Shown piece after piece: positions 38,197 through 57,364 of a DNA stretch of 64,000 nucleotides. The notes beneath the pieces are model-generated. The model was not told where the DNA came from, searched no databases, and saw only the letters and a list, made by a program, of their open reading frames with translations. The stretch covers positions 4,402,001 to 4,466,000 of the forward strand of contig NZ_JAOQNK010000001.1 of NCBI RefSeq assembly GCF_025961315.1. Reading direction: 5' to 3'. Origin of the DNA: Sphingobacterium kitahiroshimense (GTDB taxonomy: Bacteria > Bacteroidota > Bacteroidia > Sphingobacteriales > Sphingobacteriaceae). Made by a program: the position numbers and the translations under genes. Numbering within the stretch: position 1 is the stretch's first letter; the number at the start of each line of letters is the position of its first letter.

Positions 38197-38714
38197 AATC
38201 AATTGGTTTAATCTAATCAGATCGACAATTTGTTCTTCACTTATATCTCTTTGCATCAACTTTGTCTAAAGAGCCAATGAATTAAATAACACAAGAAAAA
38301 AGGGAAACTTAATTTAATTCCTTAATCAATAATGGTTAGCTTTAAATAGCTCATTTTTTCCGTCTTACTTGAGCATCTAAATGTTTCAAAAAGTCAGATT
38401 CAAATTGGTATCTTCTTTAAAGATATAGAATGTTATTTAAAATAAATGTAATATAAACATTTATTTTAAAAATTGATTACTTTCTTGTTTGTGTCTCTTT
38501 TTTATCAAAAGCTCCGTAAAAATGCGTTTTTAGTCAAAAGAAACATGTAATCAATGGCTATAATCATAAAATGATCCCATTTTGTATGTTGAATAAACTA
38601 AAATTAAACATCGACCGTATAGATTTTATCTAGATTTGAATAACCAATCTTCAATCATATTTACATCTGCTAAACCCTGTTGATTGGATTTTTTAAACCT
38701 TAAAATTTTAAGAT
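38197..38714. promoter_or_regulatory. Divergent control region between HTCS and GH105
   Basis: About 0.5 kb without a gene. It should hold the promoters of the HTCS and the enzyme operon. A perfect AT-rich 14-bp inverted repeat lies at 38436-38449 / 38457-38470 (TTTAAAATAAATGT / ACATTTATTTTAAA). TAGATTTG at 38631-38638 fits the TAnnTTTG -7 box, 77 bp before the GH105 ATG, but no -33 TTTG is at the usual distance. Confidence 0.4.
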
Positions 38715-39827
38715 ATGCACAAATACGTTCTTGTTTATTTTCTTCTGATTACTTATTCTGTCTTTGGACAAGACTTTAAAAAGAGTGATGTTTTGGCCCA
38801 ATTGAATGTTGCTAATCAATATTGGCAGACCAATCATAAGCCTCAAGTTTGGGCATTTTGGGATCAAGCCGCTTATCACAGTGGTAATATGGAGTTTTAT
38901 AAAGAGTTTAAAAATAAAAACTTCTTAAAATATACAGAAGATTGGGCAGATTTTAATGAATGGAAGGGTGCAAAATCAACTGATAAAGCGAATTGGAAAT
39001 ATAGCTATGGGGAGACCGATGACTATGTGTTATTTGGCGATTGGCAGATCTGTTTTCAAACGTATATTGATCTTTATCATATCGCCCCTAAAGCTTACAA
39101 GATAGCTCGAGCGCAAGAAGTGATGAATTACCAAATTCATTCCAAACATTATGATTACTGGTGGTGGGCTGATGGACTATATATGGTTATGCCTGTAATG
39201 ACTAAGATGTACAATTTAACTAAAAACCCGCTCTATTTAGAAAAACTTCATGAATATTTGGATTATGCAGATGGTATCATGTATGATAAGGATGAAAAAT
39301 TGTATTATAGGGATGCAAAATACGTTTATCCAAAACATAAGACTGCCCATGGAAAAAAAGACTTTTGGGCAAGAGGTGATGGTTGGGTATTCGCGGGATT
39401 AGCAAAAGTGCTACAAGATCTACCCAAAGACAATGCTCATTATAAACATTATGTAAAACGTTTTCAAGATATGGCCGATGCTATTGTAGCGTGTCAACAG
39501 AAGGAGGGTTTCTGGACGAGAAGTATGCTGGATCCAGAACATGCACCCGGTAAAGAATCCAGTGGAACGGCATTCTTTACTTATGGACTTCTTTGGGGCA
39601 TTAATAATGGTATTCTGAACAAAAACGAATTTGAGGGTGCTGCAAAAAAAGGATGGCATTATTTAAGTACTGTTGCTTTACAGCGTGATGGAAAAGTAGG
39701 TTATATTCAGCCTATAGGAGAAAAGGCCATACCGGGTCAAGTGGTTGATGCCCATTCAACATCGCCATTCGGTGTCGGAGCATTTTTATTGGCAGGTGTT
39801 GAAATGTATAGATATTTAAGCGAGTAA
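38715..39827 (+). CDS. Glycoside hydrolase family 105 (unsaturated uronyl hydrolase)
   Basis: This 370-aa exported protein (signal 1-18, ending SVFGQ) matches GH105/YteR-type (alpha/alpha)6 enzymes: YDYWWWADGLYMVMPVM, with the candidate catalytic aspartate D153, then the FWARGDGWVFAGLAKVL block and VDAHSTSPFGVGAFLLAG at the C-terminus. Such enzymes remove the 4,5-unsaturated uronic acid left at the non-reducing end by polysaccharide lyases. It is the first gene of a four-enzyme operon divergent to the HTCS. The lyase it would follow is plausibly the BNR_4 protein two genes on. The stop (TAA at 39825) overlaps or abuts the next ATG. Confidence 0.9.
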   Translation: MHKYVLVYFLLITYSVFGQDFKKSDVLAQLNVANQYWQTNHKPQVWAFWDQAAYHSGNMEFYKEFKNKNFLKYTEDWADFNEWKGAKSTDKANWKYSYGETDDYVLFGDWQICFQTYIDLYHIAPKAYKIARAQEVMNYQIHSKHYDYWWWADGLYMVMPVMTKMYNLTKNPLYLEKLHEYLDYADGIMYDKDEKLYYRDAKYVYPKHKTAHGKKDFWARGDGWVFAGLAKVLQDLPKDNAHYKHYVKRFQDMADAIVACQQKEGFWTRSMLDPEHAPGKESSGTAFFTYGLLWGINNGILNKNEFEGAAKKGWHYLSTVALQRDGKVGYIQPIGEKAIPGQVVDAHSTSPFGVGAFLLAGVEMYRYLSE

Positions 39828-41062
39828 TGATGAAAAATGTATGGACATTATGGATATTCATATGCTTCGCCGCTGTGACATATGGGCAGAAGAGAAATCC
39901 TATTGCATGGAAAGAAACTTCAAGAGCCTTTTGGCTAAAGGAGATGGATCGTATGGCAAGACCGGTTATGCGTAGTCTGGCTCATGACAGTTTAAAGATC
40001 AATATGCCTCAAATTACTTCTGTTGCAGTTGACAATAAAGAACATCGCATTCAAGTACAATATGTAGAGGTATTAGGTCGAGTTTTAAGCGGAATATCGC
40101 CTTGGTTGGCTTTGAATGATGGTTCGGAAGAAGAGCAAGCATTGAGAAAACAATATCGCAATTGGACTATTCAAGCCTTAAAAAATGCCTTAGATAGTAA
40201 TGCAAATGATTTTATGCGTTTTGATCTAGGTGGGCAGCAATTAGTGGATGCCTCATTTATTTCAGTTGCTTTTTTGCGTTGTCCTTGGTTATGGGATCAT
40301 CTGGATCCTGTAACCCAAGGTCATTTGATTGAGGCTATCAAAACGACACGTCAATTCAGACCGGTGTTTTCCAATTGGTTACTTTTTTCTGCTATGAATG
40401 AAGCTTTTTTAGCCCAGTACAGTACAGGTTGGGATGTTATGCGAGTGGATTATGCTTTGCAACAACTGGAACAATGGTATGTTGGAGATGGGATGTATAT
40501 GGATGGTCCTCATTACGCATATGATTATTATAATAGTTATGTCATTCATCCTTTTTTATCCGGAATTATGGATGTCATCGAGCAAAAGACTAAAAATTAT
40601 GATAGCATGTTTGCAAAAATTAAATTACGAAACCAACGATATGCCACTATATTGGAAAGGTTGATTAATACAGATGGGACTTTTCCACCATCGGGCCGGT
40701 CAGTAATTTATCGTGGAGCAGCATTTCATCACCTGGCAGACATGGCATTGAAAAAGAGATTACCCAAAGAGTTAACGGAAGGACAAGTTCGCGCCGCTTT
40801 ATCTGCCGTTATGAAGAAAACATTTGAAAGCCCATCAACTTACCATCAAAACTGGTTAACGATTGGTTTATATGGAGATCAGCCCGGATTAGGGGATTTT
40901 TATAACAATCAGGGGAGTCCATATTTATGCAGTACTATTTTTTTACCTCTTGGACTTTCTGAAACGGATAGTTTTTGGACTTCCAAAGAAGAAGAATGGA
41001 GTTCGAAGCGTATTTGGTCTGGACAGGATTGGAAAAAAGATCAAAGTAAGGTCATTCAATAA
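39827..41062 (+). CDS. DUF2264 family protein, short form (putative glycan-active enzyme)
   Basis: The 411-aa exported protein (signal 1-20, ending TYGQ) has the DUF2264 (PF10022) string pattern: RAFWLKEMDRMARPVMRSLAHDSL, YVEVLGRVLSGISPWLAL, NWLLFSAMNEAFL, DGMYMDGPHYAYDYYNSYVI and DGTFPPSGRSVIYRGAAF (quoted in parts). DUF2264 proteins are predicted (alpha/alpha)6 barrels found in loci for uronate- and rhamnose-containing glycans. I recall beta-glucuronidase activity reported for some members but cannot verify it here. It overlaps or abuts GH105 and lies 12 bp before the BNR_4 gene. Confidence 0.8.
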   Translation: MMKNVWTLWIFICFAAVTYGQKRNPIAWKETSRAFWLKEMDRMARPVMRSLAHDSLKINMPQITSVAVDNKEHRIQVQYVEVLGRVLSGISPWLALNDGSEEEQALRKQYRNWTIQALKNALDSNANDFMRFDLGGQQLVDASFISVAFLRCPWLWDHLDPVTQGHLIEAIKTTRQFRPVFSNWLLFSAMNEAFLAQYSTGWDVMRVDYALQQLEQWYVGDGMYMDGPHYAYDYYNSYVIHPFLSGIMDVIEQKTKNYDSMFAKIKLRNQRYATILERLINTDGTFPPSGRSVIYRGAAFHHLADMALKKRLPKELTEGQVRAALSAVMKKTFESPSTYHQNWLTIGLYGDQPGLGDFYNNQGSPYLCSTIFLPLGLSETDSFWTSKEEEWSSKRIWSGQDWKKDQSKVIQ

Positions 41063-41074
41063 TAGATAAGAGTC

Positions 41075-42430
41075 ATGAGATTAATAACATTTTGTACAGT
41101 TGGAGTAATTTATTTTTATCTTATCCTTTCCTTAAATTTCTGTTTTTCGCAAAGCAAGCAGCTTCAGGTCATGGAAGTTGGAGACGGTTGGGCTAAGAAT
41201 ACGGTCAATACAGCTGTTTTTCGAAAAAATTCTCTCGTTAGTGATGCGAAGTTTCAATACATAGCCTACTACAACGAGAAGGGAAAAGTTGTATTAGGAA
41301 AAAGAAAGTTGAACGAGAAGAGCTGGCAGCTACAGGTTACCGAATATACGGGCAGAGCTAAGGATGCACATAATATTATCAGTATCATGATTGATGGAGA
41401 GGGATATTTACATGTTTGTTGGGATCATCATAATGGTCAGTTGCGATATGCTCGAACAAAGCAGCCGCATACACTGGACTTAGGACCTGAGCAGTCTATG
41501 ATCGGGGAAGATGAACAGTATGTGACTTATCCTGAATTTTTTAAAATGCCTGATGGTTCATTATTATTTCTTTATCGTGATGGCGGTTCTGGATCAGGAA
41601 ATCTTGTTATGAATAATTATGATCCCAAGAATAAAAAATGGACTAGACTGCATCGTAATTTAATCGATGGAGAAGGGAAACGAAATGCTTATTGGCAGGC
41701 ATATGTCGACAACCAAGGAACGATACATTTGTCTTGGGTATGGCGAGAAAGTCCCGATGTAGCCAGTAATCATGATATAGCATATGCTTGTTCTAAGGAT
41801 GGAGGGCTCACTTGGGAGTCTACTACTGGAGCTCAATATACATTACCTATACAGGAATCAACAGCGGAATATGCGGTGCGTATTCCTCAAAACAGTGAAT
41901 TGATCAATCAAACATCGATGGCTGCAGATGATGATGGGAATCCATTTATTGCGACTTACTGGCGGGCTGCAGGTTCTACAATTCCTCAATATAAAATTAT
42001 TTATTATAGGAAAGGTGCTTGGGAAGTCCGTTCTTTTGATTTTAGAAAAATGTCTTTCAGTTTGAGTGGACATGGGACAAAAGAAATACCTATAGCGAGA
42101 CCACAATTAATGGTTAAAGGGAAAGGAGATAGGGTTGCTGTCATGCTCTTGTTCCGGGATAAGGAAAGATTAGGTCGAGCTTCTGTCTTGAACTTAAATA
42201 AGGTGACGGATAATGATTATCAACTATTTGATTTGAATAACGAATCATTAGGAGCATGGGAACCCAGTTATGATACTGAGATGTGGCGAAACAAGGGGCG
42301 ATTATCACTATTTGTTCAAGCTACTGATCAAAAGGATGGAGAAGGACTTTTAGAATCTGGTCCAAGTAAGGTCAGGGTTATTGAATGGGCGCCTAGTCTC
42401 GAGGCAATACAAAATATAATCAAACATTAA
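41075..42430 (+). CDS. BNR_4 seven-bladed-propeller protein, polysaccharide-lyase-like (PL24/PL25 type)
   Basis: The 451-aa exported protein (signal ~1-25, ending FSQS) is a BNR-repeat propeller of the PF15892 kind: [18 protein letters not shown] followed by [12 protein letters not shown], then [26 protein letters not shown]. From memory, ulvan lyases of families PL24 and PL25 use a His-His-Tyr-Arg set. H99 and H119 here are 20 residues apart, and Y152 and R168 are 16 apart, the spacing I recall for PL25. A lyase on rhamnose-uronate linkages is therefore likely but not proven; GH145-like hydrolases share the fold. It sits between two DUF2264 genes and next to GH105. Confidence 0.75.
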
Positions 42431-42432
42431 TT

Positions 42433-44457
42433 ATGAAAAAATACATGTTTGGGTTTATGTCCTGCTTCATATTCATTGTATCCTATCCCATGGATATGTT
42501 CGGACAAGGGACAAGAGATGCTGTTTTTAACGTCAAAAATCCAGATCTGAATCTCAGTCCCTATACCGGTATGAACCGTCAACATTGGTTAGATGCAGCC
42601 GAATATCTTTTAAAGGGTGCCTTTAGTTACGTCAGTAATCTGGATAGCCCGATGGAGTTTCCTAAACAACCAGGACGTAGTTATCCTAGAGACGGCGTTC
42701 ATACGGAAACAGAACGGTTGGAAGGACTTTGTAGGACTCTGTTTATTGCTTTGCCTTTGATGAAGGGAAATCCCGACTATGAAATTGGTGGTCTAAAGAT
42801 TGCCGATTATTACCGGCATCAGATTACGCAATTAGTGAATCCAAATTCGACGAGTTTCATTCCACCTTTACCCAAAAAAGGAGGACCAAGTCAAAAGCTT
42901 GTTGAATTTGGTGGTTTGGCCGTATCGCTGATGGCCGCTCCCGAAATTTTATGGGATCCGCTATCACAGGAGAAAAAAGATACTTTAGCGCATACACTCT
43001 TAAGTTATGGTAACGGACCTACTATTGATATGAATTGGCGTTTTTTTAATGTCATGATTTTAAGCTTTTTTAAGAGTAAAGGTTACTCGATACGTGAAGA
43101 TTATTTAAAGGAATTGTTGGAGAAATGTTTATCTGATTATAAGGGGAATGGTTGGTATAATGACCAGCCTTATTATGATTATTATAGTATGTGGGGGTAT
43201 CAGATGTACGGAACTTTATGGGCTACCTATTATGGCGATCAGATGTATCCAGATTATGCGAAGAAGTTCAGGACTCATTTAAGAGAAATGGTCGGTCATT
43301 ATCCTTATATGTTCAGTAAGGACGGGGAAATGATTATGTGGGGGAGAAGTATTGCCTATCGCATGGGAGCTGCTGTTCCCTTTCCTCTGATGGGTTTTCT
43401 AGAGGACAAAAGCATCAATTATGGATGGATGCGAAGAATTGCATCAGGAACACTGCTACAATTTCTCAAACAGCCTGATTTTTTATCTGAAGGTATTCCT
43501 ACACTTGGTTTTTATGGTGCATTTGAACCTGCCGTGCAGGAATACAGCTGTAGGGGAAGTGCTTTTTGGTTGGGTAAAATATTTTTAGGATTGCTCATTC
43601 CTGATGATAATATATTTTGGACAGCAAATGAAAATTTAGGTGCTTGGGAGAGCGAGATACCAAAAGCGAAGGTGTTGAATAAGCTTGCTCCTGGTGCTGA
43701 AATTTTGATTACTGATTATGCTGGAATTGGCGCATCAGAGATCAGGGCTTGGTGTGATAGTAAAACTATCGGCTATTATCAGGGAACTGAGAATTATAAT
43801 AAACTGGCTTATAATAGCGCATTTCCTTGGCAAGCGGATGGAAAGAATGGTGAAGTATCAATGAACTATATGTTTCAAATTGGTGGGAAGAAATGGGAAT
43901 CACTTCGCCGTTATAAATTCAAAGGCTATCAGGATGATATTTATTACAGGGACGCTGTATTAGCTTCGGATTCTACCATCAGCTTGCAACTTGCAGATAT
44001 TATACTTCCTAACGGAATCTTGCGTATAGATCAGGTGTATAGCCAAAAATCTATTGCGCTACGGTTGGGACACTACGCATTGCCACAATATGAAGATAGA
44101 GCAATTGTTGAGCATCAAATTAAATATAAAAAATGGACAGCAAGTATTATTGACAATGGGCAGTATCAGTTAGCTGTTATTCCTGTTGAGGGCTGGGAAG
44201 AGGTGGAGATAGTAAGTGCAGCAGGTTTAAACCCAGTTTCTGAAACGAGTAAAGTCCTGAATTTAAAAGCAAACACAAGTGCAAATCAAAAGCAATTGTT
44301 TGCGACACTTATGTTATGGAAAAAATCGGGCGAAAAATGGACTAATGATGAATTATTCCCAATAAAAAAATTGAACCAAAAGCTGAATCAAGTAGGAATT
44401 AGTAGGAAAAATGGTCGTTATCAAGTCTTGAATTTGATATCCACGGATCAACAATAA
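42433..44457 (+). CDS. DUF2264 family protein, long form with C-terminal extension
   Basis: The 674-aa exported protein (signal 1-24, ending MFGQ) has an N-terminal DUF2264-type barrel: [73 protein letters not shown] and [15 protein letters not shown]. It is followed by a ~270-residue beta-rich C-terminal part without recognised motifs. It is longer than the DUF2264 neighbour at 39827 and differs strongly from it, so the two probably cut different bonds. It is two bases after the BNR_4 gene and last in the enzyme operon, followed by a strong hairpin. Confidence 0.8.
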
Positions 44458-44996: not shown

Positions 44997-47900
44997 ATGT
45001 TAACCCACTATTGCAATAAATACGCAAAAAGCACATTGCTATTAAACAGTTTATTTTTAATAGCAATGACTACTTATGGTCAAGCAACTTCCATAAAGGG
45101 AACTATTCGAGACGCTTCTACAGGAAAAACCATAAGCAACATTACCGTTAAAGTAAAAGGAAGTTCGGTCAGTACACAAACAAATACCGTCGGTAGCTTT
45201 ACCATTCAAGCTAATCACGGAAATACTTTGATCATTTCCTCGGTCGGATATCAGGAAAAGGAGGTTATTGTACCTCAGGGGGGAATTGTTGATGTTACGC
45301 TTGTTCCATCTGAAAATGTACTTGACGAATTAGTTGTGGTCGGATATGGAATACAAAAGAGATCGGATGTTACGGGGTCTGTGGCATCAGTACCAAAGGA
45401 TCGATTGTCAAAAATTCCGGTTACGAATGTGATGCAAGCTATCCAAGGTGCCGTATCCAATGTTTCGGTTTCGCAAGCATCCTCTATACCTGGAGATGCT
45501 CCAAATGTTCAAGTTCGAGGTAAGAACTCGATCAATGCATCTTCAGAACCGTATATTGTCGTTGATGGAATTCCGCTATCGCGTACAGATGGTTCTATTA
45601 ATGATATCAATCCCAATGATATTGAGTCGGTCGAGATCTTAAAAGATCCATCAGCTGTTGCGATTTATGGTGTGAATGGTTCTAATGGTGTTATTTTGAT
45701 CACCACAAAGCGCGGTACATCCGGAACCCCGCGTATTCGTTACAGTGGTTATGGCGGTGTAGAAAATGTTGCACATATTCTTAAGCCCGTTTCGGGAGAA
45801 GAGCTTTTAAAGCGTTATGCTGAATATTCCCGCATTAATAATAGTCCGCTATATAATGGTGGTCCGGTTCGCAATCGGAATGAGCTTGATAATTACACCA
45901 ATGGTGTGACCATCGATTGGTTGGATGCGGTGATGCAGACAGGTGTGATCCAGAATCACAATGTCAGTTTATCAGGTGGAAGTGAGAATGCCAAATACTA
46001 TGTCTCTGGAGATTATCTGGATCAAAAAGGCGTTTTATTAGGATACAACTATAAAAGATATTCATTTAGAACGAATACAGATTTTAAACCAACTAAATAT
46101 TTATCGGTAGGTACATCATCTTATATCATAGCGCATAATAGAGATGGTGGACGCGCGAGTCTTCTACAGGCTGCTGCAATGAGCCCTTATGCCAAAATGT
46201 ATAACGATGACGGCACTTTAACACAGCATCCCATGTATTCGGAACAGCTTTGGACCAATCCACTTTTGCCAACGACATTAAATCCAGAGCGTCGTCAATT
46301 TAATATCTCCCTCAACGGTTATGCAGATCTTAATTTTGGGGAGCTTTACAAACCGCTGGAAGGTTTAAAATATAAACTCAATGCAGGATATATTTATGTC
46401 CCTGGTCGTACCAACGAATATGAAGGGGAGAGTGTTTATAATTTTGCCGGGATGGGTCGTATCACCAACAGTGAATCTCAGTCATATACAGTAGAGAATA
46501 TATTAACCTATAACAAGGATTTTGGTAAGCATCATCTTGATTTCACAGGATTATATGCCTCAAAAAGTAAATATTGGCAACAGGCTATTGCTACAGGAGA
46601 GGTATTCCCTAATGATGCCTTGGAATGGGGTAATCTAGGTGCTGCCGCCACACAGAAAGTGTCTTCTCAAGCCGACTTGTACCGCTCTATTTCCCAAATG
46701 GGTAGATTAAATTACTCTTACGATAGCCGTTATTTATTTACAGTAACTGCACGTCGAGATGGGGCCTCTATCTTTGGTAGAAATAATAAATACGGAATGT
46801 TTCCATCTGCCGCTGTCGCATGGAATATACATAATGAATGGTTCATGAATAGCACTAAAGATGTGGTGGACAATTTAAAATGGAGAATATCTTACGGTAT
46901 TTCTGGAAATGAGGCTATTGGCATCTATGAAACGCTTTCGTTAATGGATGCCAGTACTATTGCGATGAAAGGCTTATCCAATACGGCATTGAATATTCGT
47001 AAAAGAATGGGAAATGATGATTTGGAATGGGAAAAAACAAAGGGATTCAATACAGGGATTGACTTCGGATTATTTAAAAGCAGAATAAGTGGAAGCATCG
47101 ATGTGTATAAAACCAATTCTTATGATATACTTTTAAAACAGCGCCTTCCAAGACTTACGGGTTTTGAAGATGTGTATTTTAATATTGGAAAGGTTGCTAA
47201 TACAGGTATAGACCTGACGCTGAATACCAAAAATATTGTGAAGAATGATTTTACTTGGTCCAGTACGGTTGTATTCTCCCGCAATAAAAATAAGATTGTA
47301 GAAGTTTATGGTGATGGAAAAGAAGATCTGGGCAATAGGTGGTTGATCGGACATCCGCTGGGTATCATCTATGATTTTACCAAAGTGGGGATCTGGCAGG
47401 AAGAGGAAATAAAAGCGGGAGCTAATAAAGGATGGGATGAACAAGCAGAAGCAGGAAGTGTAAAATTAGCGGATCTAAATGGTGATGGTCTAATTAATGA
47501 GGACGACCGATCTGTATTGGGACAAACTGCCCCGAAATGGACCGCTGGACTTACCAATACATTTAGCTATAAAGCATTTTCATTAAATATTTTCATCAAT
47601 ACGGTGCAAGGAGCACTACGCAATAATCCGCAGATCGGTTCGGCTGCAGATGAAATGGGACGTAAAAGTACGCCAGCAGAATTGGGCTATTGGACTCCTG
47701 AAAATAAAAGTAACGAATGGCGTTCATTGAGTAATCGTTCCAATGTATATGGTTATGGGTTTCCATCAAATGCAAGTTTTACACGGTTGAAAGATGTGAC
47801 CTTAAGTTACAATATGCCACAAAATACCTTGAATAAATTGGGTATCAATGGGGCTACGGTTTATGTCAGTGGCCGAAACCTATATACATGGACCAATTGG

Positions 47901-48008
47901 ATTGGCTGGGATCCCGAAGCTCGAGATATCACTCGTGGATCTGATAATGCTCATCTAAATTATCCAATGGTTCGCACCTATGTACTTGGAGTTAATTTAA
48001 CCTTTTAA
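44997..48008 (+). CDS. SusC/RagA-type TonB-dependent outer-membrane transporter
   Basis: The 1003-aa outer-membrane protein has a signal (ends ~29, TYGQ), a CarboxypepD_reg-like domain (~32-110, IKGTIRDASTGKTI...), then ELVVVGYGIQKRSDVTGSV and the plug (~115-230) with the SusC signature VYGxxGSNGVILITTKRG-like sequence (IYGVNGSNGVILITTK), and a C-terminal barrel ending VLGVNLTF. SusC proteins import oligosaccharides using TonB. It pairs with the SusD gene 91 bp downstream; the gap contains a palindromic repeat. Confidence 0.95.
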   Translation: MLTHYCNKYAKSTLLLNSLFLIAMTTYGQATSIKGTIRDASTGKTISNITVKVKGSSVSTQTNTVGSFTIQANHGNTLIISSVGYQEKEVIVPQGGIVDVTLVPSENVLDELVVVGYGIQKRSDVTGSVASVPKDRLSKIPVTNVMQAIQGAVSNVSVSQASSIPGDAPNVQVRGKNSINASSEPYIVVDGIPLSRTDGSINDINPNDIESVEILKDPSAVAIYGVNGSNGVILITTKRGTSGTPRIRYSGYGGVENVAHILKPVSGEELLKRYAEYSRINNSPLYNGGPVRNRNELDNYTNGVTIDWLDAVMQTGVIQNHNVSLSGGSENAKYYVSGDYLDQKGVLLGYNYKRYSFRTNTDFKPTKYLSVGTSSYIIAHNRDGGRASLLQAAAMSPYAKMYNDDGTLTQHPMYSEQLWTNPLLPTTLNPERRQFNISLNGYADLNFGELYKPLEGLKYKLNAGYIYVPGRTNEYEGESVYNFAGMGRITNSESQSYTVENILTYNKDFGKHHLDFTGLYASKSKYWQQAIATGEVFPNDALEWGNLGAAATQKVSSQADLYRSISQMGRLNYSYDSRYLFTVTARRDGASIFGRNNKYGMFPSAAVAWNIHNEWFMNSTKDVVDNLKWRISYGISGNEAIGIYETLSLMDASTIAMKGLSNTALNIRKRMGNDDLEWEKTKGFNTGIDFGLFKSRISGSIDVYKTNSYDILLKQRLPRLTGFEDVYFNIGKVANTGIDLTLNTKNIVKNDFTWSSTVVFSRNKNKIVEVYGDGKEDLGNRWLIGHPLGIIYDFTKVGIWQEEEIKAGANKGWDEQAEAGSVKLADLNGDGLINEDDRSVLGQTAPKWTAGLTNTFSYKAFSLNIFINTVQGALRNNPQIGSAADEMGRKSTPAELGYWTPENKSNEWRSLSNRSNVYGYGFPSNASFTRLKDVTLSYNMPQNTLNKLGINGATVYVSGRNLYTWTNWIGWDPEARDITRGSDNAHLNYPMVRTYVLGVNLTF

Positions 48009-48099: not shown

Positions 48100-49842
48100 A
48101 TGAAAAAAACAATGAATATTCAAAATAAGTTATTACCTGTCTTTGCGATCTTTTTGTTAGGTTCTGCATCTTGTAGTAAGAATTTTCTGGAAGAGAAACC
48201 CTATTCTAATTACGAAGCTGGAAATAGTGATCCATCAACAATAGAAAATAGAGTTTTAGGTTTGCATGCGACTTTTGGTCAATTGTGGGGTTATAGTGGG
48301 CGTCAAGGATTTTTGTCGTGTTGGCAGATCGGTACTGATATCGCAAATGCTGGTTCTACGGAAGGTGTGGAAAATCCTTTTTTTCAATATGCTGATCTCA
48401 ATCCAGAAAATGGTGGAGTAAGCTACTTATGGCAACGCTGTTACGAGTTTATTAACAATGCAAATAGCATTATTGAAGCTGTAGGGGATACTAATCCAAA
48501 GGCAGCAGCAGAAGCAAGATTCTTTAGAGCTTATGCTTATCATATGTTGGTCACGCTATGGGGCGATGTGCCTTTGTTGACTACTTCTATTAAAGTTCCA
48601 ACGTTCAATTATGTACGAAATTCTACTGTAGAAGTGGACAAAGTGATTGTTGAAGATCTGGAATATGCGGCTAAGGAATTGGCTAATGTTGGACAAGCTG
48701 CTGCTCCAAGCCGGATCAATAAAGATATGGCAAGACAATTGGCTGCTGAAGTTTATCTTCGAATGGGCATGAGAGATCCTGCTTATTTTGCTAAAGCAGA
48801 AGCCATGGCAACAGCCATCATTGAAAGCGGCAGTTATAAATTAATTGACAGTCGTTACGGTAAATACTTAAATGAGGGTGGCGATGCTTTTCGAGATATG
48901 TTTAGACAGGGCAATATGCGCCGCGCTCAAGGAAATACCGAAGCCATATGGACTTTTGAAGTTGAATTTAATCGCGAAGTGAATGGTGGAACCATCGATA
49001 ATCCGCAGCATCGTCGTGTATGGCAACCTTCCTATCACAAGTGGGATGGAATGGTAAACGCTGATTCTCTTGGAGGAAGGGGTAATGGACGTTTGAGATT
49101 AAGCAATTTTATGAAGTATACGGTCTGGAAAGGACTTCAAGGTGATATTCGGAATAGCAATTATAATATCCGTCGTACCACAAATTATAACCGACCTAAT
49201 ATGACCGTCAACAATGCTGTGGTAACACCATGGAGTACAGAAATCGGTGTGGATGCCGATGGTTATCGTGTTGCTAAAGGTGCAGGGGTTAGAAATGTGA
49301 CGATAAAAACTGGTGATAAAGTGATTCCTTTTCGTACAGACAGTTTGGAAGTATGGTATCCTTTCCCAACAAAGTGGGGTGGTTATGATCCGATAGATGA
49401 TTTTGGCTATGCATTGGTCAAAGATTGGCCAGTCATGCGGTTTGGAGAAACGTATCTATTAAGGGCAGAGGCACGTCTTAGACAAAATAATCTAGGCGGA
49501 GCAGCTGAGGATATCAATAAGTTGAGAGATCGTTCTTTTAAAGATACGCGTATTCAATCTGGAAACACCGCTTTAGGAAAGGTTCTCGCATCAAATATGA
49601 CGATCGATTTTATTCTTGATGAACGTGCCCGTGAGTTGATTTCAGAAGAAAATCGTAGAATGACTTTGGTGAGAACAAATAAACTCAAAGAACGTATTGC
49701 TTTAAATGGTGATCAAGGACCGGCAAATAAAATAACCAGTGGTTTCCAAGATTATAATATTTTACTTCCAATCCCCTTGAGTGAAATTCAATTAAATAAC
49801 AAAGAAGGGGAAGGACTTAAACAAAATTTAGGATATAAATAA
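48100..49842 (+). CDS. SusD/RagB-type surface glycan-binding lipoprotein
   Basis: This 580-aa lipoprotein has a lipobox LLGSASCSK (Cys ~26) and the SusD helical TPR-like fold: AAAEARFFRAYAYHMLVTLWGDVPL (quoted in parts RAYAYHMLVTLWGDVPL), RINKDMARQLAAEVYLRMG, then the C-terminal ARELISEENRRMTLVRTNKL and PLSEIQLNNKEG..LKQNLGY. It binds the target oligosaccharide and caps SusC. The substrate is inferred from the neighbours to contain rhamnose and uronic acid. Confidence 0.94.
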   Translation: MKKTMNIQNKLLPVFAIFLLGSASCSKNFLEEKPYSNYEAGNSDPSTIENRVLGLHATFGQLWGYSGRQGFLSCWQIGTDIANAGSTEGVENPFFQYADLNPENGGVSYLWQRCYEFINNANSIIEAVGDTNPKAAAEARFFRAYAYHMLVTLWGDVPLLTTSIKVPTFNYVRNSTVEVDKVIVEDLEYAAKELANVGQAAAPSRINKDMARQLAAEVYLRMGMRDPAYFAKAEAMATAIIESGSYKLIDSRYGKYLNEGGDAFRDMFRQGNMRRAQGNTEAIWTFEVEFNREVNGGTIDNPQHRRVWQPSYHKWDGMVNADSLGGRGNGRLRLSNFMKYTVWKGLQGDIRNSNYNIRRTTNYNRPNMTVNNAVVTPWSTEIGVDADGYRVAKGAGVRNVTIKTGDKVIPFRTDSLEVWYPFPTKWGGYDPIDDFGYALVKDWPVMRFGETYLLRAEARLRQNNLGGAAEDINKLRDRSFKDTRIQSGNTALGKVLASNMTIDFILDERARELISEENRRMTLVRTNKLKERIALNGDQGPANKITSGFQDYNILLPIPLSEIQLNNKEGEGLKQNLGYK

Positions 49843-50033: not shown

Positions 50034-51110
50034 ATGAATGCTGTTTTCGGAGTTTTATTTCATTTCATTGGCGGTTTTGCGTCAGGAAGTTTTTATGTGC
50101 CTTATAAGAAAGTTGAAGGATGGTCATGGGAATCCATGTGGATCCTAGGTGGTCTATTTTCTTGGATTATTGTACCACCATTTGCAGCATGGGTAACTAT
50201 TCCTAATTTTTGGGAGATTATCAGCAATGCCCAGGCAGCTACTTTATACTATACTTTTTTATTTGGATTGTTATGGGGTATAGGTGGACTTACCTATGGT
50301 CTAGGGATACGTTATCTTGGTGTTTCCTTAGGTAGCAGTATTATTTTGGGCTTAAGTATGGTCTTTGGTTCGCTGATGCCAAGTCTTTATTATTTTTTTT
50401 ACCCCACAGTGGGTAAACATGGAGTCAACTATTTTTTTATGACTCAATCAGGAACTTGCATATTGATAGGTTTATTAATATGTCTAATGGGTGTTGTACT
50501 GTGCGGTCGGGCAGGTGTTTCAAAGGAGAAAAGTCTTTCGACTCTTTCTAAGGCCGCAAGGTCTGATTACAATTTTACTCTGGGTATTATCGTTGCGATC
50601 ATTTCTGGTGTACTTAGTGCTTGTTTCAATTTTGGTATTGAAGCAGGTAAGCCGCTTGCTAATGTTGCAAATTCCATATGGAAAAATAGTAATTCGAACA
50701 GTGGAGAATTTCTTTATCAAAATAATGTGACTTATATCATTATCCTTTGGGGAGGTTTTACTACAAATTTTATATGGTGCGTCTATCTCCTAATTAAAAA
50801 TAGAACTTTTTCAGACTATACTAAATCCAATGTACCAAAAGGAAAGAATTTACTTTTTTGTGCTTTGGCAGGTACAATGTGGTATTTACAGTTCTTTTTT
50901 TATGGTATGGGTGAGAGTCGATTGGGTAATGGTGCCAGTTCTTGGATTCTTCACATGGCGTTCATTATTTTAATTTCAAATGCTTGGGGAATTATATTAA
51001 ATGAGTGGAAGGGCGTGAATAGAATGGCATATCGATCTATAATTGCAGGAATAGCGACAATCATAATTTCTATTTGTGTCGTAGGGTTTGCAAGAACTTT
51101 AGAAAATTAA
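50034..51110 (+). CDS. rhaT: L-rhamnose/proton symporter RhaT
   Basis: The 358-aa inner-membrane protein has about ten hydrophobic helices and the RhaT pattern near the N-terminus (FHFIGGFASGSFYVPYKKVEGWSWESMW, quoted in parts), later GSSIILGLSMVFGSL and GNGASSWILHMAFIIL. It carries free L-rhamnose into the cytoplasm. It is first in rhaT-rhaD-rhaI-rhaB, 16 bp before rhaD. Confidence 0.93.
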   Translation: MNAVFGVLFHFIGGFASGSFYVPYKKVEGWSWESMWILGGLFSWIIVPPFAAWVTIPNFWEIISNAQAATLYYTFLFGLLWGIGGLTYGLGIRYLGVSLGSSIILGLSMVFGSLMPSLYYFFYPTVGKHGVNYFFMTQSGTCILIGLLICLMGVVLCGRAGVSKEKSLSTLSKAARSDYNFTLGIIVAIISGVLSACFNFGIEAGKPLANVANSIWKNSNSNSGEFLYQNNVTYIIILWGGFTTNFIWCVYLLIKNRTFSDYTKSNVPKGKNLLFCALAGTMWYLQFFFYGMGESRLGNGASSWILHMAFIILISNAWGIILNEWKGVNRMAYRSIIAGIATIIISICVVGFARTLEN

Positions 51111-51126
51111 TTTAATATATATAGCA

Positions 51127-53235: not shown

Positions 53236-53316
53236 GTTTTATATCTTAGTTTTTAAGGAATGAAAAGAAAGTACATGCTGTATCTAAGTAAATTTTAACC
53301 AATAACCATTTTTAAT

Positions 53317-54591
53317 ATGATTTTAGATCAACAATTAATAAAAAAGCACAATAATAAATTAGAAAAGAAACATAATCGAGCATTTGAATTTATTTCCCAG
53401 GATATTGATGAAGTTGAAGAGCTTATTGCTAAACTTCAGAAATTTCAGATCGGGATACCGAGTTGGGCACTAGGGACAGGTGGTACACGTTTCGGACGCT
53501 TTTCTGGCCCTGGCGAGCCAGGGAGTTTGGAGCAAAAGTTTGAAGATGTTGGTTTACTACATGCTCTTAATAAATCTAGTGGAGCTATTTCCTTACATAT
53601 ACCTTGGGATATCCCAAAAGACGCCGTAAAAGTGAAGGAATTGGCACGTTCTTTAAATATCACGTTCGATGCTGTTAATTCCAATACTTTTCAAGATCAA
53701 CCACAGCAGGAATATAGTTATAAGTATGGATCTTTGCATCATGTTGATCCTGAGGTTCGCAAGCAGGCTATCGACCATAATATTGAGGTTATCAATTATG
53801 GGAAAGCTCTCGGTTCGAAGGCTTTGACTGTTTGGTTAGCTGATGGTTCATCTTTTCCTGGCCAATTGAATTTCCGTGAGGCTTTTCAGAATACGTTATC
53901 CAGTTTGCAGGAAATCTATAAACACTTACCCGAGGATTGGAAATTGTTTATCGAGTATAAAGCTTTCGAACCTTATTTCTATTCGATGACCATTGGAGAT
54001 TGGGGGCAGTCTCTACTTTTGGCAAATAAGCTGGGCCCTAAAGCTTACACATTAGTGGATTTAGGGCACCATTTACCAAATGCTAATATTGAACAGATCG
54101 TATCATTGTTATTAATGGAGGGGAAGCTTGGCGGTTTTCATTTTAATGATAGTAAATATGCTGATGACGATTTAACAGCAGGAAGTATTAAACCCTATCA
54201 ACTTTTTCTGATTTTTAATGAATTAATTGATGGGATGGATGTGAAGGGAATGGATCACGCTACTGGTTTAGGTTGGATGATTGATGCTTCACATAATCTT
54301 AAAGATCCTTTAGTGGACTTGCTGCAATCTGTTGAAGCCATTAAAATTGCTTATGCGCAAGCATTACTTATCGATCGTGTTGCACTCAAGGCCGCTCAAC
54401 AAGCGAATAATATTGTAAAAGCACAAGAAATTCTTCAAGATGCATTTCGTACGGATGTAAGACCATTGGTTGCTGAATCTAGGTTGAGGAGTGGTGCAGC
54501 TTTAAATCCTGTATTATTATTTGAGGAGGAAAAATTACGTGATAAGCTAATAGAAGAGAGAGGTTTACAAACTATTGCAACTGGATTATAA
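53317..54591 (+). CDS. rhaI: L-rhamnose isomerase (Pseudomonas-type)
   Basis: The 424-aa TIM-barrel sugar isomerase converts L-rhamnose to L-rhamnulose. Motifs: SWALGTGGTRFGRFSGPGEPG (quoted in parts SWALGTGGTRFGRF), FIEYKAFEPYFYS, LVDLGHHLPNANIEQIV and GGFHFNDSKYADDDLTAGSI, with acidic and His metal ligands. It resembles the RhaI family, not E. coli RhaA. It is 81 bp after rhaD and 10 bp before rhaB. Confidence 0.9.
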   Translation: MILDQQLIKKHNNKLEKKHNRAFEFISQDIDEVEELIAKLQKFQIGIPSWALGTGGTRFGRFSGPGEPGSLEQKFEDVGLLHALNKSSGAISLHIPWDIPKDAVKVKELARSLNITFDAVNSNTFQDQPQQEYSYKYGSLHHVDPEVRKQAIDHNIEVINYGKALGSKALTVWLADGSSFPGQLNFREAFQNTLSSLQEIYKHLPEDWKLFIEYKAFEPYFYSMTIGDWGQSLLLANKLGPKAYTLVDLGHHLPNANIEQIVSLLLMEGKLGGFHFNDSKYADDDLTAGSIKPYQLFLIFNELIDGMDVKGMDHATGLGWMIDASHNLKDPLVDLLQSVEAIKIAYAQALLIDRVALKAAQQANNIVKAQEILQDAFRTDVRPLVAESRLRSGAALNPVLLFEEEKLRDKLIEERGLQTIATGL

Positions 54592-54601
54592 AGTTTTTAG
54601 G

Positions 54602-55957
54602 ATGAATAATGATAAAATTCCTGTAGTTGCTATTTTCGATGTTGGTAAAACCAACAAAAAGCTGTTTCTATTTGATTCTAATTATCAGATCGTGTTTGAA
54701 CGTTCGGCCAGATTTTTAGAAACAAAGGATGAGGACGGGGATCCTTGTGAAAATCTTGAAAGTCTTAGATTATCGGTTTTTGATTCACTTCATGAGGTCT
54801 TTAGAAAGAATGAATTTGAAATTAAAGCGATTAATTTTACATCATACGGGGCTAGCTTTGTATATCTTGATGAAAATGGTAGACCCTTAACTCCATTATA
54901 TAATTATCTAAAAGAATTTCCTGTTACTATTCAACAAGAACTGCATAATAAGTATGGAGGAGAGGAACATTTTTCTTTAACAACTTCATCGCCAACATTA
55001 GGTAGTTTAAATTCGGGTTTCCAGATTCTTCGATTAAAAAAGAAGCAACCAGAAATTTATAAACAGGTCAACTTTGCTCTGCATTTGCCCCAATATTTAA
55101 GTTTTCTGGTTTCTGGAAAGTTCTACTCAGATATGACCAGCATCGGTTGTCATACTGCTCTATGGGATTTTGAAAAGGGTGAGTATCATCAATGGGTACA
55201 AGATGAGGGTATTACCAAGGTGTTAGCTCCAATTGTTAAAGGAGATGAAGTTTTTGATGGTGCATTTCCTGGTAGCCCTTTTAGAGTAGGAGCGGGGCTT
55301 CATGATAGTTCTTCGGCTTTAATTCCTTATTTATTCAATTTTAGTGAACCATTTGTTCTAATATCCACGGGCACTTGGTGTATCTCATTTAATCCATTTA
55401 ATAATAGTGCTCTAACTTCTTGCGAACTAAAAAAGGACTGTTTGTTTTATCAATCTTATTTAGGAAACCCGGTTAAGGCTTCGCGGTTATTTGCAGGTTA
55501 TGAACATGAACTGCAATCTAAACGAATTGCTGATTTCTTTCATGTTACGACAGCGAAGTTTCGTAATCTTCAGCTTAATCTAAGGATTTTAGAAAAATTA
55601 ATGAAAGAGCCTGTAATTGTGGATTTAAAAGCATTTTCAAAAGTTGAGCTTGATCGATACCGTAATTATGAAGAAGCTTACCATAGTTTAATTTTACACC
55701 TCATCAAAGTACAGGTGGAATCAACAAAACTAGTTTTAGATGCGAATAAGATCTCTAGAATATTTGTAGACGGTGGGTTTAGTAAGAACCATATTTATAT
55801 GAGTCTTCTGGCAAAAGAATTTCCTGAAGTCGAAGTTTTTGGCGCTTCAATGGCTCAGGCAACAGCATTGGGCGCAGCTCTTGTCATTCATGACCATTGG
55901 AATGAGCTGGCAATACCGAATGACCTTATTGCATTGCGGTACTTTAGAAATAAATGA
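54602..55957 (+). CDS. rhaB: L-rhamnulokinase
   Basis: A FGGY-family sugar kinase of ~451 aa with AIFDVGKTNKKLFLFD (phosphate-binding), GAGLHDSSSALIPYL, ISTGTWCISFNPF and the ATP-binding IFVDGGFSKN. It phosphorylates L-rhamnulose to rhamnulose-1-phosphate. The start at 54602 is preferred: it begins at the conserved kinase N-terminus. An earlier start at 54575 would overlap rhaI by 17 nt. It is last in the operon. Confidence 0.9.
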   Translation: MNNDKIPVVAIFDVGKTNKKLFLFDSNYQIVFERSARFLETKDEDGDPCENLESLRLSVFDSLHEVFRKNEFEIKAINFTSYGASFVYLDENGRPLTPLYNYLKEFPVTIQQELHNKYGGEEHFSLTTSSPTLGSLNSGFQILRLKKKQPEIYKQVNFALHLPQYLSFLVSGKFYSDMTSIGCHTALWDFEKGEYHQWVQDEGITKVLAPIVKGDEVFDGAFPGSPFRVGAGLHDSSSALIPYLFNFSEPFVLISTGTWCISFNPFNNSALTSCELKKDCLFYQSYLGNPVKASRLFAGYEHELQSKRIADFFHVTTAKFRNLQLNLRILEKLMKEPVIVDLKAFSKVELDRYRNYEEAYHSLILHLIKVQVESTKLVLDANKISRIFVDGGFSKNHIYMSLLAKEFPEVEVFGASMAQATALGAALVIHDHWNELAIPNDLIALRYFRNK

Positions 55958-55990
55958 AATTTAAATTGTTATAGATCAGAACTATGAATA

Positions 55991-56026
55991 AGAAAAGGGT
56001 CGAGTGTAATCACTTGATCCTTTTCT
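55991..56026 (+). terminator. Terminator of the rha operon
   Basis: A 16-bp stem with two G-T pairs (55991-56006 with 56011-56026, AGAAAAGGGTCGAGTG / CACTTGATCCTTTTCT) has a 4-nt loop; the T-rich right arm ends the run. Confidence 0.75.
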
Positions 56027-56093
56027 TCAATACAAAAGGTTTCTAAATAGAGAGCGTGAAAGTCTTTAAAAAACCAATTGTTTTTTAGGAATC

Positions 56094-56127
56094 ATTAGAC
56101 AAACAACCTTTAAGGTGTTTGTCTAAT
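56094..56127. promoter_or_regulatory. Palindrome upstream of the GntR-type regulator
   Basis: ATTAGACAAACA (56094-56105) and TGTTTGTCTAAT (56116-56127) are perfect 12-bp arms, with a further CCT/AGG pair inside. There is no T-run, so it is a better operator than terminator candidate. The remainder of the 369-bp gap 55958-56326 also carries CTGTTATGG at 56197-56205. Confidence 0.5.
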
Positions 56128-56326
56128 CATGAATGGCGTAAATAGATTTTTTACCAGAACAAGTTTACGGCTATTGACAATAGTTTCCATCTTGTGCTGT
56201 TATGGTACCTAGTAGTAAACACCTAAAAAAGTTGAAATATGAAAAATATGAATGGTCTTGGAGTTTAACTTTTTTAAAATTTTATGCTAATTAATTGTTA
56301 TTTTAGTGATTAATCTAAATTTTAAA

Positions 56327-57364
56327 ATGACCAATTCAACTGCTCAGTTTTTAATGACACTGGAGATCAGTGATTTTTCAGCAACTCCTAAATATCTCCA
56401 ATTGGCGAATACCATCATTGATGCGGTAAAAAATGAAAGGCTTAAGAAGAGTGAAATGCTTCCTTCAATTAATGAATCCAGTACTTATCTTGAAATATCT
56501 AGAGATACGGTTGAAAAGGCTTATCGCTATTTAAAAAAGCATGAAATTATTGCATCAAATCCAGGTAAGGGATACTATGTCAATAAAACAGATATTCAAT
56601 CCAAATGTAAAATTGCACTGTTTCTGAATAAATTGAGTGTTCACAAAAAAATAGTCTATGATTCATTTGCGAAGGAGTTGGGGGATTATGCTGATCTCGA
56701 TTTATTTGTCTATAATTCAGACCTTTCTTATCTCAAGAATTTATTAGCGAATCTGACCAAAACTTATGACTATTACGTGCTGTTTCCACATTTTAAAGAG
56801 GGACGAGATAAAGCGCCAGATATTATTCGTAGAATACCAATCGATAAGCTAATGTTATTAGGACGATTTATTGATGATGTACCTGGTGATTTTCCAGCGG
56901 TTTATGAGAATTATGAACAGGATATTTATTTAGCATTGGAACAAGCTAATGAAGTTTTAAGTAAATATAAAATGATAAAATTGGTTTTTCCAGATCATAG
57001 TGATTTCCCAAAAGCAATTATCAAAGGTTTTTATAAATTTTGTCAGCAATACGCTTTTGATCATGAGCTGGTGTCTGAATTAAATAAAGAAAAAGTGGTA
57101 GTGGGTACTTGTTATATTAATATTATTGAAGATGATCTCGTAAAGCTACTGAACAAGATCCAGCAGAAAAAGCTTTTGATAGGTAAAGATATTGGTGTTA
57201 TTTCCTATAATGAAACACCTTTAAAGAAATTTATTTTGAATGGAATTACAACCATATCAACTGATTTTGAAACAATGGGACGGATGGCGGCAAATCTGAT
57301 TAAAAATAACTCTAAAGAGAGGCTAGAAGTTCCATTTAATATTAAGATTCGAGCTTCTATATAA
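56327..57364 (+). CDS. GntR-type regulator with LacI-like sensor domain, candidate rhamnose regulator
   Basis: A ~345-aa protein with an N-terminal GntR winged helix (~8-75: YLQLANTIIDAVKNERLKKSEMLPSINESS, quoted in parts LQLANTIIDAVKNER and SRDTVEKAYRYLKKHEII) and a C-terminal periplasmic-binding-like sensor (~100-340: IALFLNKLSVHKKIVYDSF, IISTDFETMGRMAANLI). This fusion regulates sugar genes in Bacteroidota. The ATG at 56327 is preferred to GTG at 56306. Its location beside rhaTDIB and the shared CATAACAG motif suggest that it controls rhamnose catabolism. Confidence 0.85.
   Translation: MTNSTAQFLMTLEISDFSATPKYLQLANTIIDAVKNERLKKSEMLPSINESSTYLEISRDTVEKAYRYLKKHEIIASNPGKGYYVNKTDIQSKCKIALFLNKLSVHKKIVYDSFAKELGDYADLDLFVYNSDLSYLKNLLANLTKTYDYYVLFPHFKEGRDKAPDIIRRIPIDKLMLLGRFIDDVPGDFPAVYENYEQDIYLALEQANEVLSKYKMIKLVFPDHSDFPKAIIKGFYKFCQQYAFDHELVSELNKEKVVVGTCYINIIEDDLVKLLNKIQQKKLLIGKDIGVISYNETPLKKFILNGITTISTDFETMGRMAANLIKNNSKERLEVPFNIKIRASI

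What the first reader, a model, noticed from the sequence alone, without database searches (positions are those of the whole stretch)
41075..42430. Lyase-like catalytic residue spacing in a terrestrial-type BNR_4 protein
H99-H119 (20 apart) and Y152-R168 (16 apart) reproduce the His-His-Tyr-Arg spacing I recall for PL25 ulvan lyases. The Y-R spacing also matches PL24. Its genome context has no sulfatases, which suggests a new substrate range for this fold.
Basis: partly seen in the sequence, partly recalled or inferred. Interest (0 to 1): 0.55.

Follow-up and report, generated by a model that had tools for sequence, protein, structure and literature searches.

The report
Rhamnose-glucuronate lyase of a known family

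Summary
The four residues are real. H99, H119, Y152 and R168 of the 451-aa protein at 41075-42430 align to FoRham1 His85, His105, Tyr150 and Arg166 (PL42), and show the same 20 and 16 spacings in PL25. They are present in all 127 proteins aligned (window plus one from each of 126 loci). But this is not a new lyase type: it is a GH145/PL42 member, 50-53% identical to solved Bacteroides enzymes, a family with published lyase activity on rhamnose-glucuronate caps of plant arabinogalactan proteins (AGP). FoRham1 cuts gum arabic, so lack of sulfatases alone does not imply a new substrate range, although the Bacteroides lyases' authors suspected a sulfated substrate for theirs. The posterior hydrolase histidine is Asp57 here, so lyase-only action is predicted. 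The gene lies in a utilisation locus with GH105, two DUF2264 (glucuronate dehydratase family) genes, SusC/D, and the genome's only RhaT and RhaD genes, which fits consumption of both expected products. Apparently new: in relatives the lyase is fused to GH105 (both orders) or to the dehydratase; 46 of 126 PL42 loci carry an exo-beta-1,3-galactanase-like GH43, pointing to AGP. New member of a known kind.

The parts
41075..42430 (+). PL42/GH145 protein, BNR_4 beta-propeller, 451 aa, hydrophobic N-terminal segment (signal peptide by eye)
41363..41371 (+). D97-A98-H99: D97 = FoRham1 Asp83 (pivot), H99 = FoRham1 His85 / BT3686 His90 (base-acid catalyst)
   Evidence: D97 in 123 of 124, H99 in 124 of 124 rows; both in the 3 left-out rows
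41429..41431 (+). H119 = FoRham1 His105 / BT3686 His110 (supporting His)
   Evidence: 124 of 124 plus 3 of 3
41528..41530 (+). Y152 = FoRham1 Tyr150 / BT3686 Tyr143
   Evidence: 124 of 124 plus 3 of 3
41576..41578 (+). R168 = FoRham1 Arg166 (carboxylate neutraliser)
   Evidence: 124 of 124 plus 3 of 3
42098..42100 (+). R342 = BT3686 Arg333 by constant offset 9 (R333A inactive on wine AGP)
   Evidence: 124 of 124, but only 1 of the 3 left-out distant rows
41243..41245 (+). D57 at the place of BT3686 His48, the posterior rhamnosidase residue
38715..39827 (+). GH88/GH105-type unsaturated glucuronyl hydrolase, 370 aa (Pfam Glyco_hydro_88)
39827..41062 (+). DUF2264 (former GH154) glucuronate dehydratase family, BcGDH-like, 411 aa; Y235, R291, Y295 at BcGDH Y229, R285, Y289
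42433..44457 (+). second DUF2264 protein, 674 aa, about the size of BT3677 (cloned as residues 30-673); Y251, R305, Y309 align to the same residues
34144..38259 (-). hybrid two-component system regulator (Reg_prop, Y_Y_Y, HisKA, HATPase, response regulator, AraC HTH), divergent
44997..48008 (+). SusC-type TonB-dependent receptor (Plug, CarbopepD_reg_2)
48100..49842 (+). SusD-type glycan-binding protein
50034..51110 (+). RhaT L-rhamnose/proton symporter, the only one found in the genome
51127..53235 (+). RhaD: bifunctional rhamnulose-1-phosphate aldolase/short-chain dehydrogenase, the only place over the TIGR02632 cut-off in the genome
53317..54591 (+). L-rhamnose isomerase type (TIGR02629/TIGR02635, below curated cut-offs)
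54575..55957 (+). FGGY kinase, probable rhamnulokinase (weak rhamnulokinase matches, position)
56306..57364 (+). GntR-type regulator with periplasmic-binding-like domain, probable rhamnose regulator (inference)

Best explanation
The protein is a secreted (probably periplasmic), exo-acting L-rhamnose-alpha-1,4-D-glucuronate lyase of family PL42 (former GH145). In the anterior pocket of its beta-propeller R168 neutralises the GlcA carboxylate; H99 (helped by D97 and H119) takes the C5 proton and then protonates the leaving oxygen, so L-rhamnose leaves and a Delta-4,5-unsaturated GlcA is left on the glycan. The neighbouring GH105 removes that unsaturated residue. The two DUF2264 proteins probably dehydrate uncapped terminal beta-GlcA to the same unsaturated residue, giving GH105 a second feed. 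SusC/D imports the oligosaccharide, and RhaT with the isomerase, kinase and RhaD burns the rhamnose. The natural substrate is most likely Rha-GlcA-capped side chains of plant arabinogalactan proteins. Shown here: family, fold, residues, gene content, fusions in relatives. Inferred: activity, product, order of steps, substrate, location.
For: Sequence: phmmer to 5mum, 5mvh, 5muk, 4irt at E <= 2.3e-142 and to FoRham1 (7esk, 7esl, 7esn) at E <= 8.8e-30. Fold: AlphaFold2 model, mean pLDDT 79.5, pTM 0.83; VIA-align Z 54.3 to 5mum (rmsd 2.0, 392 aligned), 40.7 to FoRham1 7esk (2.6, 391), 31.9 to PL25 5uam (3.0, 370), 29.4 to PL24 LOR_107 6byx (2.9, 374). The residues whose mutation abolishes or cuts activity by about 98% or more in FoRham1, or made BT3686 inactive on wine AGP, are present and the same in 124 of 124 rows. 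Genes: GH105, two DUF2264, SusC/D and a rhamnose catabolic set in one region; single RhaT, single RhaD above cut-off, one GH78 place, one BNR_4 protein in the genome (GH106 was not searched). Relatives: GH105 in 76 of 126 PL42 loci, a DUF2264 gene in 84 of 126, both in 63, against 0 of 20 control regions. Fusions: GH105-PL42 in 5 loci, PL42-GH105 in 2, PL42-DUF2264 in 2; the five of these nine put to Pfam all show both domains. AGP: a GH43 whose solved relatives include exo-beta-1,3-galactanases is in 46 of 126 loci, 0 of 20 controls, and a homologue is elsewhere in this genome.
Against: No galactanase- or arabinosidase-type partner gene was found in the window, so AGP is inferred from relatives, and GH43, GH35, GH2 and GH127 also serve other plant glycans. 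The Bacteroides lyase site cut wine AGP but not gum arabic and its authors judged a sulfated substrate probable, whereas this locus has no sulfatase. 29 of 126 loci have neither GH105 nor DUF2264 within the stretch read; by a strict same-strand, 300-base rule 77 of 126 have neither. Only 7 of 126 loci have RhaT nearby. A divergent PL42-like protein lies among sulfatases in an ulvan plasmid. No activity was measured. NCBIfam's BT3686 rhamnosidase equivalog is hit strongly but below cut-off (621 of 700 bits).
Confidence: 0.85

Rival explanations
1. A retaining alpha-L-rhamnosidase (hydrolase) acting through the posterior pocket, as described for BT3686.
For: 50-53% identity to BT3686; NCBIfam AlphRhmnaseBT3686 is the only NCBIfam hit, E 7.1e-187.
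Against: The catalytic His48 is Asp57 here (counted); family members without that His had no rhamnosidase activity on gum arabic; the equivalog cut-off is not reached; His stands at this place in only 7 of 124 rows.
Confidence: 0.05
2. An ulvan-type lyase on a sulfated Rha-GlcA polymer (PL24/PL25 function).
For: Shared fold and residues. A BNR protein of the Alteromonas sp. 76-1 ulvan plasmid, among sulfatases, is closer to GH145/PL42 chains (4irt, E 2.8e-44) than to any PL24 or PL25 chain at the cut-off used, so divergent PL42-like proteins may act on sulfated glycans. PMC8406133 suspected sulfated substrates for the Bacteroides lyase site.
Against: Much closer to PL42/GH145 by sequence and Z; no sulfatase in the window, found in only 5 of 126 PL42 loci.
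Confidence: 0.05
3. An exo-lyase on another Rha-alpha-1,4-uronate glycan than AGP, for example a bacterial exopolysaccharide, hemicellulose or pectin (rhamnogalacturonan I) end.
For: The window's own locus has no AGP backbone enzyme; beta-elimination needs only a C4-linked uronate, and GH88/105 enzymes also serve rhamnogalacturonan (established knowledge); several partner families in relatives also occur in pectin loci (recalled).
Against: BT3686 was reported not to act on RG-I and RG-II; the adjacent dehydratases are of a beta-GlcA family; exo-beta-1,3-galactanase-like GH43 in 46 of 126 relatives' loci.
Confidence: 0.2

Closest known systems
BACINT_00347 (5mum), BACCELL_00856 (5mvh), BACPLE_00338: Bacteroides GH145/PL42 proteins without His48
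   Same: About 52-53% identity to the two solved ones, same propeller, same anterior residues; posterior His absent (Gln in the two solved ones; Asp in BACPLE_00338 by inference from PMC8377490). BACPLE_00338 and BACCELL_00856 are reported lyases on wine AGP, with GH105 gene BACPLE_00337 in the same locus.
   Different: Here two DUF2264 genes and a rhamnose catabolic operon share the locus; Sphingobacterium rather than gut Bacteroides.
FoRham1 (Fusarium oxysporum, PL42, 7esk)
   Same: The active-site residues of the paper that I mapped by counting on the alignment are kept: D97, H99, H119, Y152, R168, S172, R224, N278, Q279 (FoRham1 Asp83, His85, His105, Tyr150, Arg166, Ser170, Arg220, Asn275, Gln276). 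Window R342 and E396 probably match Arg331 and Glu381, but lie beyond the aligned stretch.
   Different: 23-25% identity; fungal, acts on gum arabic; Tyr34 at the posterior position where Asp57 stands here.
PL25 PLSV_3936 (5uam) and PL24 LOR_107 (6byx) ulvan lyases
   Same: Fold (Z 31.9 and 29.4); for PL25 the His-His and Tyr-Arg blocks at the same spacing.
   Different: 13-17% identity; reported endo-acting on ulvan; the PL25 gene of pAlt76 lies beside sulfatases.
BcGDH and BT3677 (former GH154, DUF2264) glucuronate dehydratases
   Same: Both window DUF2264 proteins keep the three catalytic residues discussed for BcGDH; window 42433-44457 has about BT3677's size.
   Different: Substrate linkage unknown; BcGDH was shown on chondrosine, BT3677 on methyl-glucuronide.

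Membership tests
PL42 (former GH145) | Sequence similarity to characterised members over the whole domain | tested here: met
   phmmer E <= 2.3e-142 to four solved GH145 sequences, residues 26-438
PL42 (former GH145) | Beta-propeller fold of the family | tested here: met
   AlphaFold2 model, Z 52-54 to GH145, 38.6-40.7 to FoRham1
PL42 (former GH145) | Anterior catalytic set: FoRham1 His85, His105, Tyr150, Arg166 and Asp83 | tested here: met
   Aligned at H99, H119, Y152, R168, D97 (counted); present in 124, 124, 124, 124 and 123 of 124 rows
PL42 (former GH145) | L-rhamnose-alpha-1,4-D-glucuronate lyase activity, unsaturated product at 235 nm | not testable with these tools
   needs an enzyme assay
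GH145 posterior-site alpha-L-rhamnosidase (BT3686 type) | Catalytic His48 on the posterior face | tested here: not met
   Asp57 at that place
PL25 | His-His-Tyr-Arg set with 20 and 16 spacing | tested here: met
   compared by eye
PL25 | Sequence similarity to PL25 members at family level | tested here: not met
   phmmer E 0.1 and 0.47 to 5uam and 5uas, 13-16% identity
PL24 | Sequence similarity to PL24 members at family level | tested here: not met
   partial match only, residues 147-264, E 1.1e-7 to 2.2e-6 for six short ulvan lyase and Uly1 chains; 14-17% identity in structural alignments
AGP-targeting polysaccharide utilisation locus | SusC/D pair and uncapping enzymes | tested here: met
AGP-targeting polysaccharide utilisation locus | Exo-beta-1,3-galactanase in the same locus | tested here: not met
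   none found in the window; a homologue lies elsewhere in the genome
DUF2264/GH154 glucuronate dehydratase | BcGDH Y229, R285, Y289 | tested here: met
   Y235, R291, Y295 in 39827-41062 and Y251, R305, Y309 in 42433-44457; chain-to-paper numbering inferred from the R-to-A change in 9nwf

The most novel reading that the evidence does not exclude
The locus is a self-contained 'cap-eating' unit. A lyase and two dehydratases convert both capped and bare glucuronic-acid ends into one unsaturated sugar, one GH105 removes it, and the genome's only rhamnose operon consumes the cap, without need of galactan breakdown and without sulfatases. In relatives the same coupling has been hard-wired repeatedly as natural two-domain enzymes (GH105-PL42, PL42-GH105, PL42-dehydratase, GH105-dehydratase) that act as bifunctional uncapping enzymes.
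Probability: 0.45. Interest if true: 0.5.

Novelty: new member of a known kind. Interest (0 to 1): 0.33.

Why it matters
It settles a plausible-sounding 'new lyase' as a member of PL42 and gives a testable reading of a whole locus. PMC8406133 said that substrates of these lyases other than sulfated AGPs remain to be identified. The gene content around PL42 in environmental Bacteroidota (galactanase-like GH43, arabinosidase-type families, dehydratase, GH105, few sulfatases) argues for non-sulfated plant AGP. The natural fusions supply ready-made candidate bifunctional enzymes and independent evidence that the former GH154 dehydratases and PL42 feed the same GH105.

Tried and rejected
New lyase family or new substrate range: rejected as stated, because solved relatives at 50-53% identity and published lyase activity exist. 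Spacing as stand-alone evidence: weak by shuffling. Posterior hydrolase: the His48 place is Asp57. Sulfated substrate: sulfatases found in 5 of 126 loci (12 of the genome's 16 sulfatase places served as queries, plus a signature pattern on frames over 380 aa, so divergent ones could be missed).

Corrections and limits. A partner cluster that I first called GH16 from one multidomain member (L157) is GH43 by Pfam for the typical member L101; counts under 'GH16' are that GH43, and the count of 46 loci is the same at 80 to 200 bits. Its best solved match, 6eug, is labelled 'Beta-glucanase'; 7bys and 5flw are labelled galactan 1,3-beta-galactosidase and exo-beta-1,3-galactanase. The large GH43 type (59 loci) has xylanase- and xylosidase-labelled best matches and says nothing for AGP. 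RhaD counts (14 of 126) include short dehydrogenases; besides the window, RhaT with RhaD, isomerase and kinase is seen only in L058, L060, L063, while L032, L033 and L039 show RhaT and a cut-off RhaD at the edge, and L158 RhaT, RhaD and GntR. The strict same-strand count is lower: GH105 39 of 126, DUF2264 38, both 28, neither 77 (only genes matched by my queries were counted, so other genes in between break runs). L120 was fetched out of score order because its long frame suggested a fusion. On first count I placed the second DUF2264 protein's residues one too high; one search corrected them. The PMC8377490 equation of LOR_107 Tyr243 with FoRham1 Tyr202 was not checked. The structure tools gave ranges and scores, not residue pairs, so residue equivalence rests on sequence alignments. 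L154, L160 and L070 fusions were not followed. The second structure job was not used. The genome-contig scan with one protein returned 7 loci; L038, a 28% partial match, was left out.

Full report
What is there. Window 41075-42430 (+) encodes a 451-aa BNR_4 protein. The genome is a Sphingobacterium: the protein is 100% identical to one in Sphingobacterium sp. B16(2022) and 91% to one in S. faecium. The window is 64 kb of a single 6.29 Mb contig.

The observation. The four residues and both spacings are as stated. Shuffling shows that the spacings alone are poor evidence (2.7% of shuffles give both pairs in this order within 60 residues). Alignment is decisive. Against FoRham1 (PL42) the residues H99, H119, Y152 and R168 fall on His85, His105, Tyr150 and Arg166 (positions counted by me with a chain offset of 2; roles from passages and one section of PMC8377490). 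In FoRham1, Ala or Phe mutants of His85 and His105, Y150A and Arg166 mutants keep about 2% activity or less, many none detected (table). BT3686 equivalents stand at a constant offset of 9: His90, His110, Tyr143, and Arg333 for window R342. BT3686 H90A, Y143F and R333A were inactive on wine AGP (passages of PMC8406133). PL25 5uam shows the same two blocks at the same spacings (by eye). The abstract of PMC10951650 adds an Asp (FoRham1 Asp83) that bridges the histidines in PL24, PL25 and PL42; it is D97 here.

How conserved. I aligned the window protein with its relatives from 126 loci. Three rows under 300 bits (L169, L170, L171) were dropped, leaving 124 rows, which include the window and a 100% identical copy. 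H99, H119, Y152, R168 and R342 are the same in 124 of 124; D97 in 123; S172, R224, N278 and E396 in 124; Q279 in 123. Of columns 28-439, 52 are invariant. In the three dropped rows D97, H99, H119, Y152 and R168 are kept in 3 of 3, while R342 and E396 are kept in 1 of 3 and S172 in 2 of 3, on an added alignment that may be off there. At the posterior place of BT3686 His48, His occurs in 7 of 124 rows (and in L170); the commonest is Phe (65), and the window has Asp. In the order-sample set it is 2 of 105. This agrees with the statement in PMC8406133 that the His is rare outside the human gut.

Fold. The AlphaFold2 model (7-sequence alignment, mean pLDDT 79.5, pTM 0.83; under 50 at 19-27, 43-48, 331-339, 421-423, 448-451) matches GH145 (Z 52.1-54.3), FoRham1 (38.6-40.7), PL25 (31.5-31.9), and PL24-type ulvan lyase chains incl. 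Uly1 (28.7-29.9); lectins follow at 26.1 and below.

The locus. Divergent regulator (34144-38259), then GH88/GH105 (38715), DUF2264 (39827), PL42 (41075) and DUF2264 (42433), with a one-base overlap and gaps of 12 and 2 bases; then SusC, SusD, RhaT, bifunctional RhaD, isomerase, kinase and a GntR-type regulator up to 57364. DUF2264 is the former GH154, which PMC12269599 (passages) found to have glucuronate dehydratase activity (BcGDH, BT3677) and to co-localise with GH88/GH105. The first DUF2264 protein matches BcGDH (9o4u) at E 1.6e-85 and keeps Y229, R285 and Y289 as Y235, R291 and Y295; the second keeps them as Y251, R305 and Y309. In the genome I found one RhaT, one RhaD above cut-off, one GH78 place, one BNR_4 protein, three DUF2264 places, two of them here, and 16 sulfatase places, none in the window. 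GH106 was not searched.

Relatives. PL42 relatives occur in 129 of 300 genomes of the order sample at E <= 1e-10 and in 23 of 395 of the phylum sample at E <= 1e-40, the window's genome counted in both. I read up to 20 kb around 126: six of the seven loci (four of them the same genomes as), 100 of the 124 other matching genomes of the order sample (best scores first, except one, L120, chosen for its long frame), and all 20 new ones of the phylum sample. GH105 is present in 76 of 126, a DUF2264 gene in 84, both in 63, neither in 29. Twenty arbitrary 20-kb regions from 20 of the order-sample genomes have neither. Other partners, named from one or two representatives each: a large GH43 type (59 loci; xylosidase-like matches), a second GH43 type related to solved exo-beta-1,3-galactanases (46), GH35 (30), GH2 (29; control 1 of 20), a further GH88-like group (23), GH127 (20), GH97 (16; control 1 of 20), GH51-type (12) and GH30 (5). 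The galactanase-like GH43 with GH35 and arabinosidase types fits AGP breakdown, though several of these families also serve pectins. Sulfatases: 5 of 126, all of one 551-552 aa type.

Fusions. Nine loci have PL42 fused in one open frame to a product-coupled enzyme: GH105-PL42 in L035 (S. gobiense), L048, L100, L103, L119; PL42-GH105 in L118, L120; PL42-DUF2264 in L043, L053. By eye, the joints show linkers up to about 25 residues and no second signal segment. Pfam shows both domains in the five scanned: L035, L043, L053, L100 and L118 (the other four rest on BLAST matches to the window proteins). L159 has GH105 fused to DUF2264 beside PL42, and L154 has GH2 fused to PL42. On a quick tree of 124 rows the state fused or unfused needs 5 changes; the five labels (unfused and four fusion kinds) need 6, with GH105-PL42 two, PL42-DUF2264 two and PL42-GH105 one. 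Gain and loss cannot be told apart, and some rows have long branches, so repeated origin is likely but not proved. I found no paper naming such fusions: no hit for six hyphenated names; the 8 papers that hold GH145 with GH105 and the 3 that hold PL42 with GH105 were seen as listings only, apart from PMC8406133 passages. CAZy and subscription journals were not searched.

A result that cuts the other way. In the Alteromonas sp. 76-1 plasmid, among sulfatases, lie a PL25 gene (matches only 5uam and 5uas at E <= 1e-10) and a second BNR gene that at E <= 1e-10 matches only GH145/PL42 chains (4irt 2.8e-44, FoRham1 2e-18). Divergent PL42-like proteins may therefore work on sulfated glycans in the sea. 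Together with the suspicion of a sulfated substrate in PMC8406133, this keeps the substrate question open for the family as a whole.

Verdict on the finding. Observation confirmed; lyase reading right; novelty of substrate not supported as argued. The best reading is a PL42 rhamnose-glucuronate lyase without the posterior hydrolase histidine, acting on AGP-type caps, in a locus that can consume both products. The founding PNAS 2017 paper on BT3686 was not held, and its content is taken from the two citing papers. PMC13169297 was seen as a listing and start of abstract only.

Noticed in passing
L035 8939-11308 (Sphingobacterium gobiense NZ_PVBS01000001.1); also L048, L100, L103, L119: Single 789-834 aa reading frames fusing GH105 to the PL42 lyase; the reverse order PL42-GH105 in L118 and L120.
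   Followed up: partly
L043 7449-10715 and L053 9329-12571: Single reading frames of 1089 and 1081 aa fusing PL42 to a BT3677-size DUF2264 glucuronate dehydratase family protein.
   Followed up: partly
L159 10726-13041; L154 7457-10621; L160 4311-6707; L070 12308-14323: Other fusions in PL42 neighbourhoods: GH105-DUF2264, GH2-PL42, BNR_4-GH88 and GH105-GH43.
   Followed up: partly
window 50034-57364: The genome's only RhaT and RhaD genes sit directly downstream of SusD; RhaT near PL42 is seen in 7 of 126 loci.
   Followed up: partly
L151 39919-41343 (Alteromonas sp. 76-1 plasmid pAlt76): A BNR protein among sulfatases in an ulvan plasmid matches GH145/PL42 chains rather than PL24 or PL25 at E 1e-10: a possible marine PL42-like enzyme on sulfated substrate.
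   Followed up: no
window about 860-1177 (+), inside ORF 431-1606: Weak GH88-type match (E 8.6e-5), a second possible uronyl hydrolase-like protein far from the locus.
   Followed up: no
genome C1:3242784-3255561 (outside the window): Third DUF2264 place of the genome lies between two GH88-type places, a second possible dehydratase/uronyl hydrolase locus.
   Followed up: no
window residue H118, codon 41426-41428: The residue before H119 is Gln in 68 and His in 47 of 124 rows, a split that may mark specificity groups.
   Followed up: no
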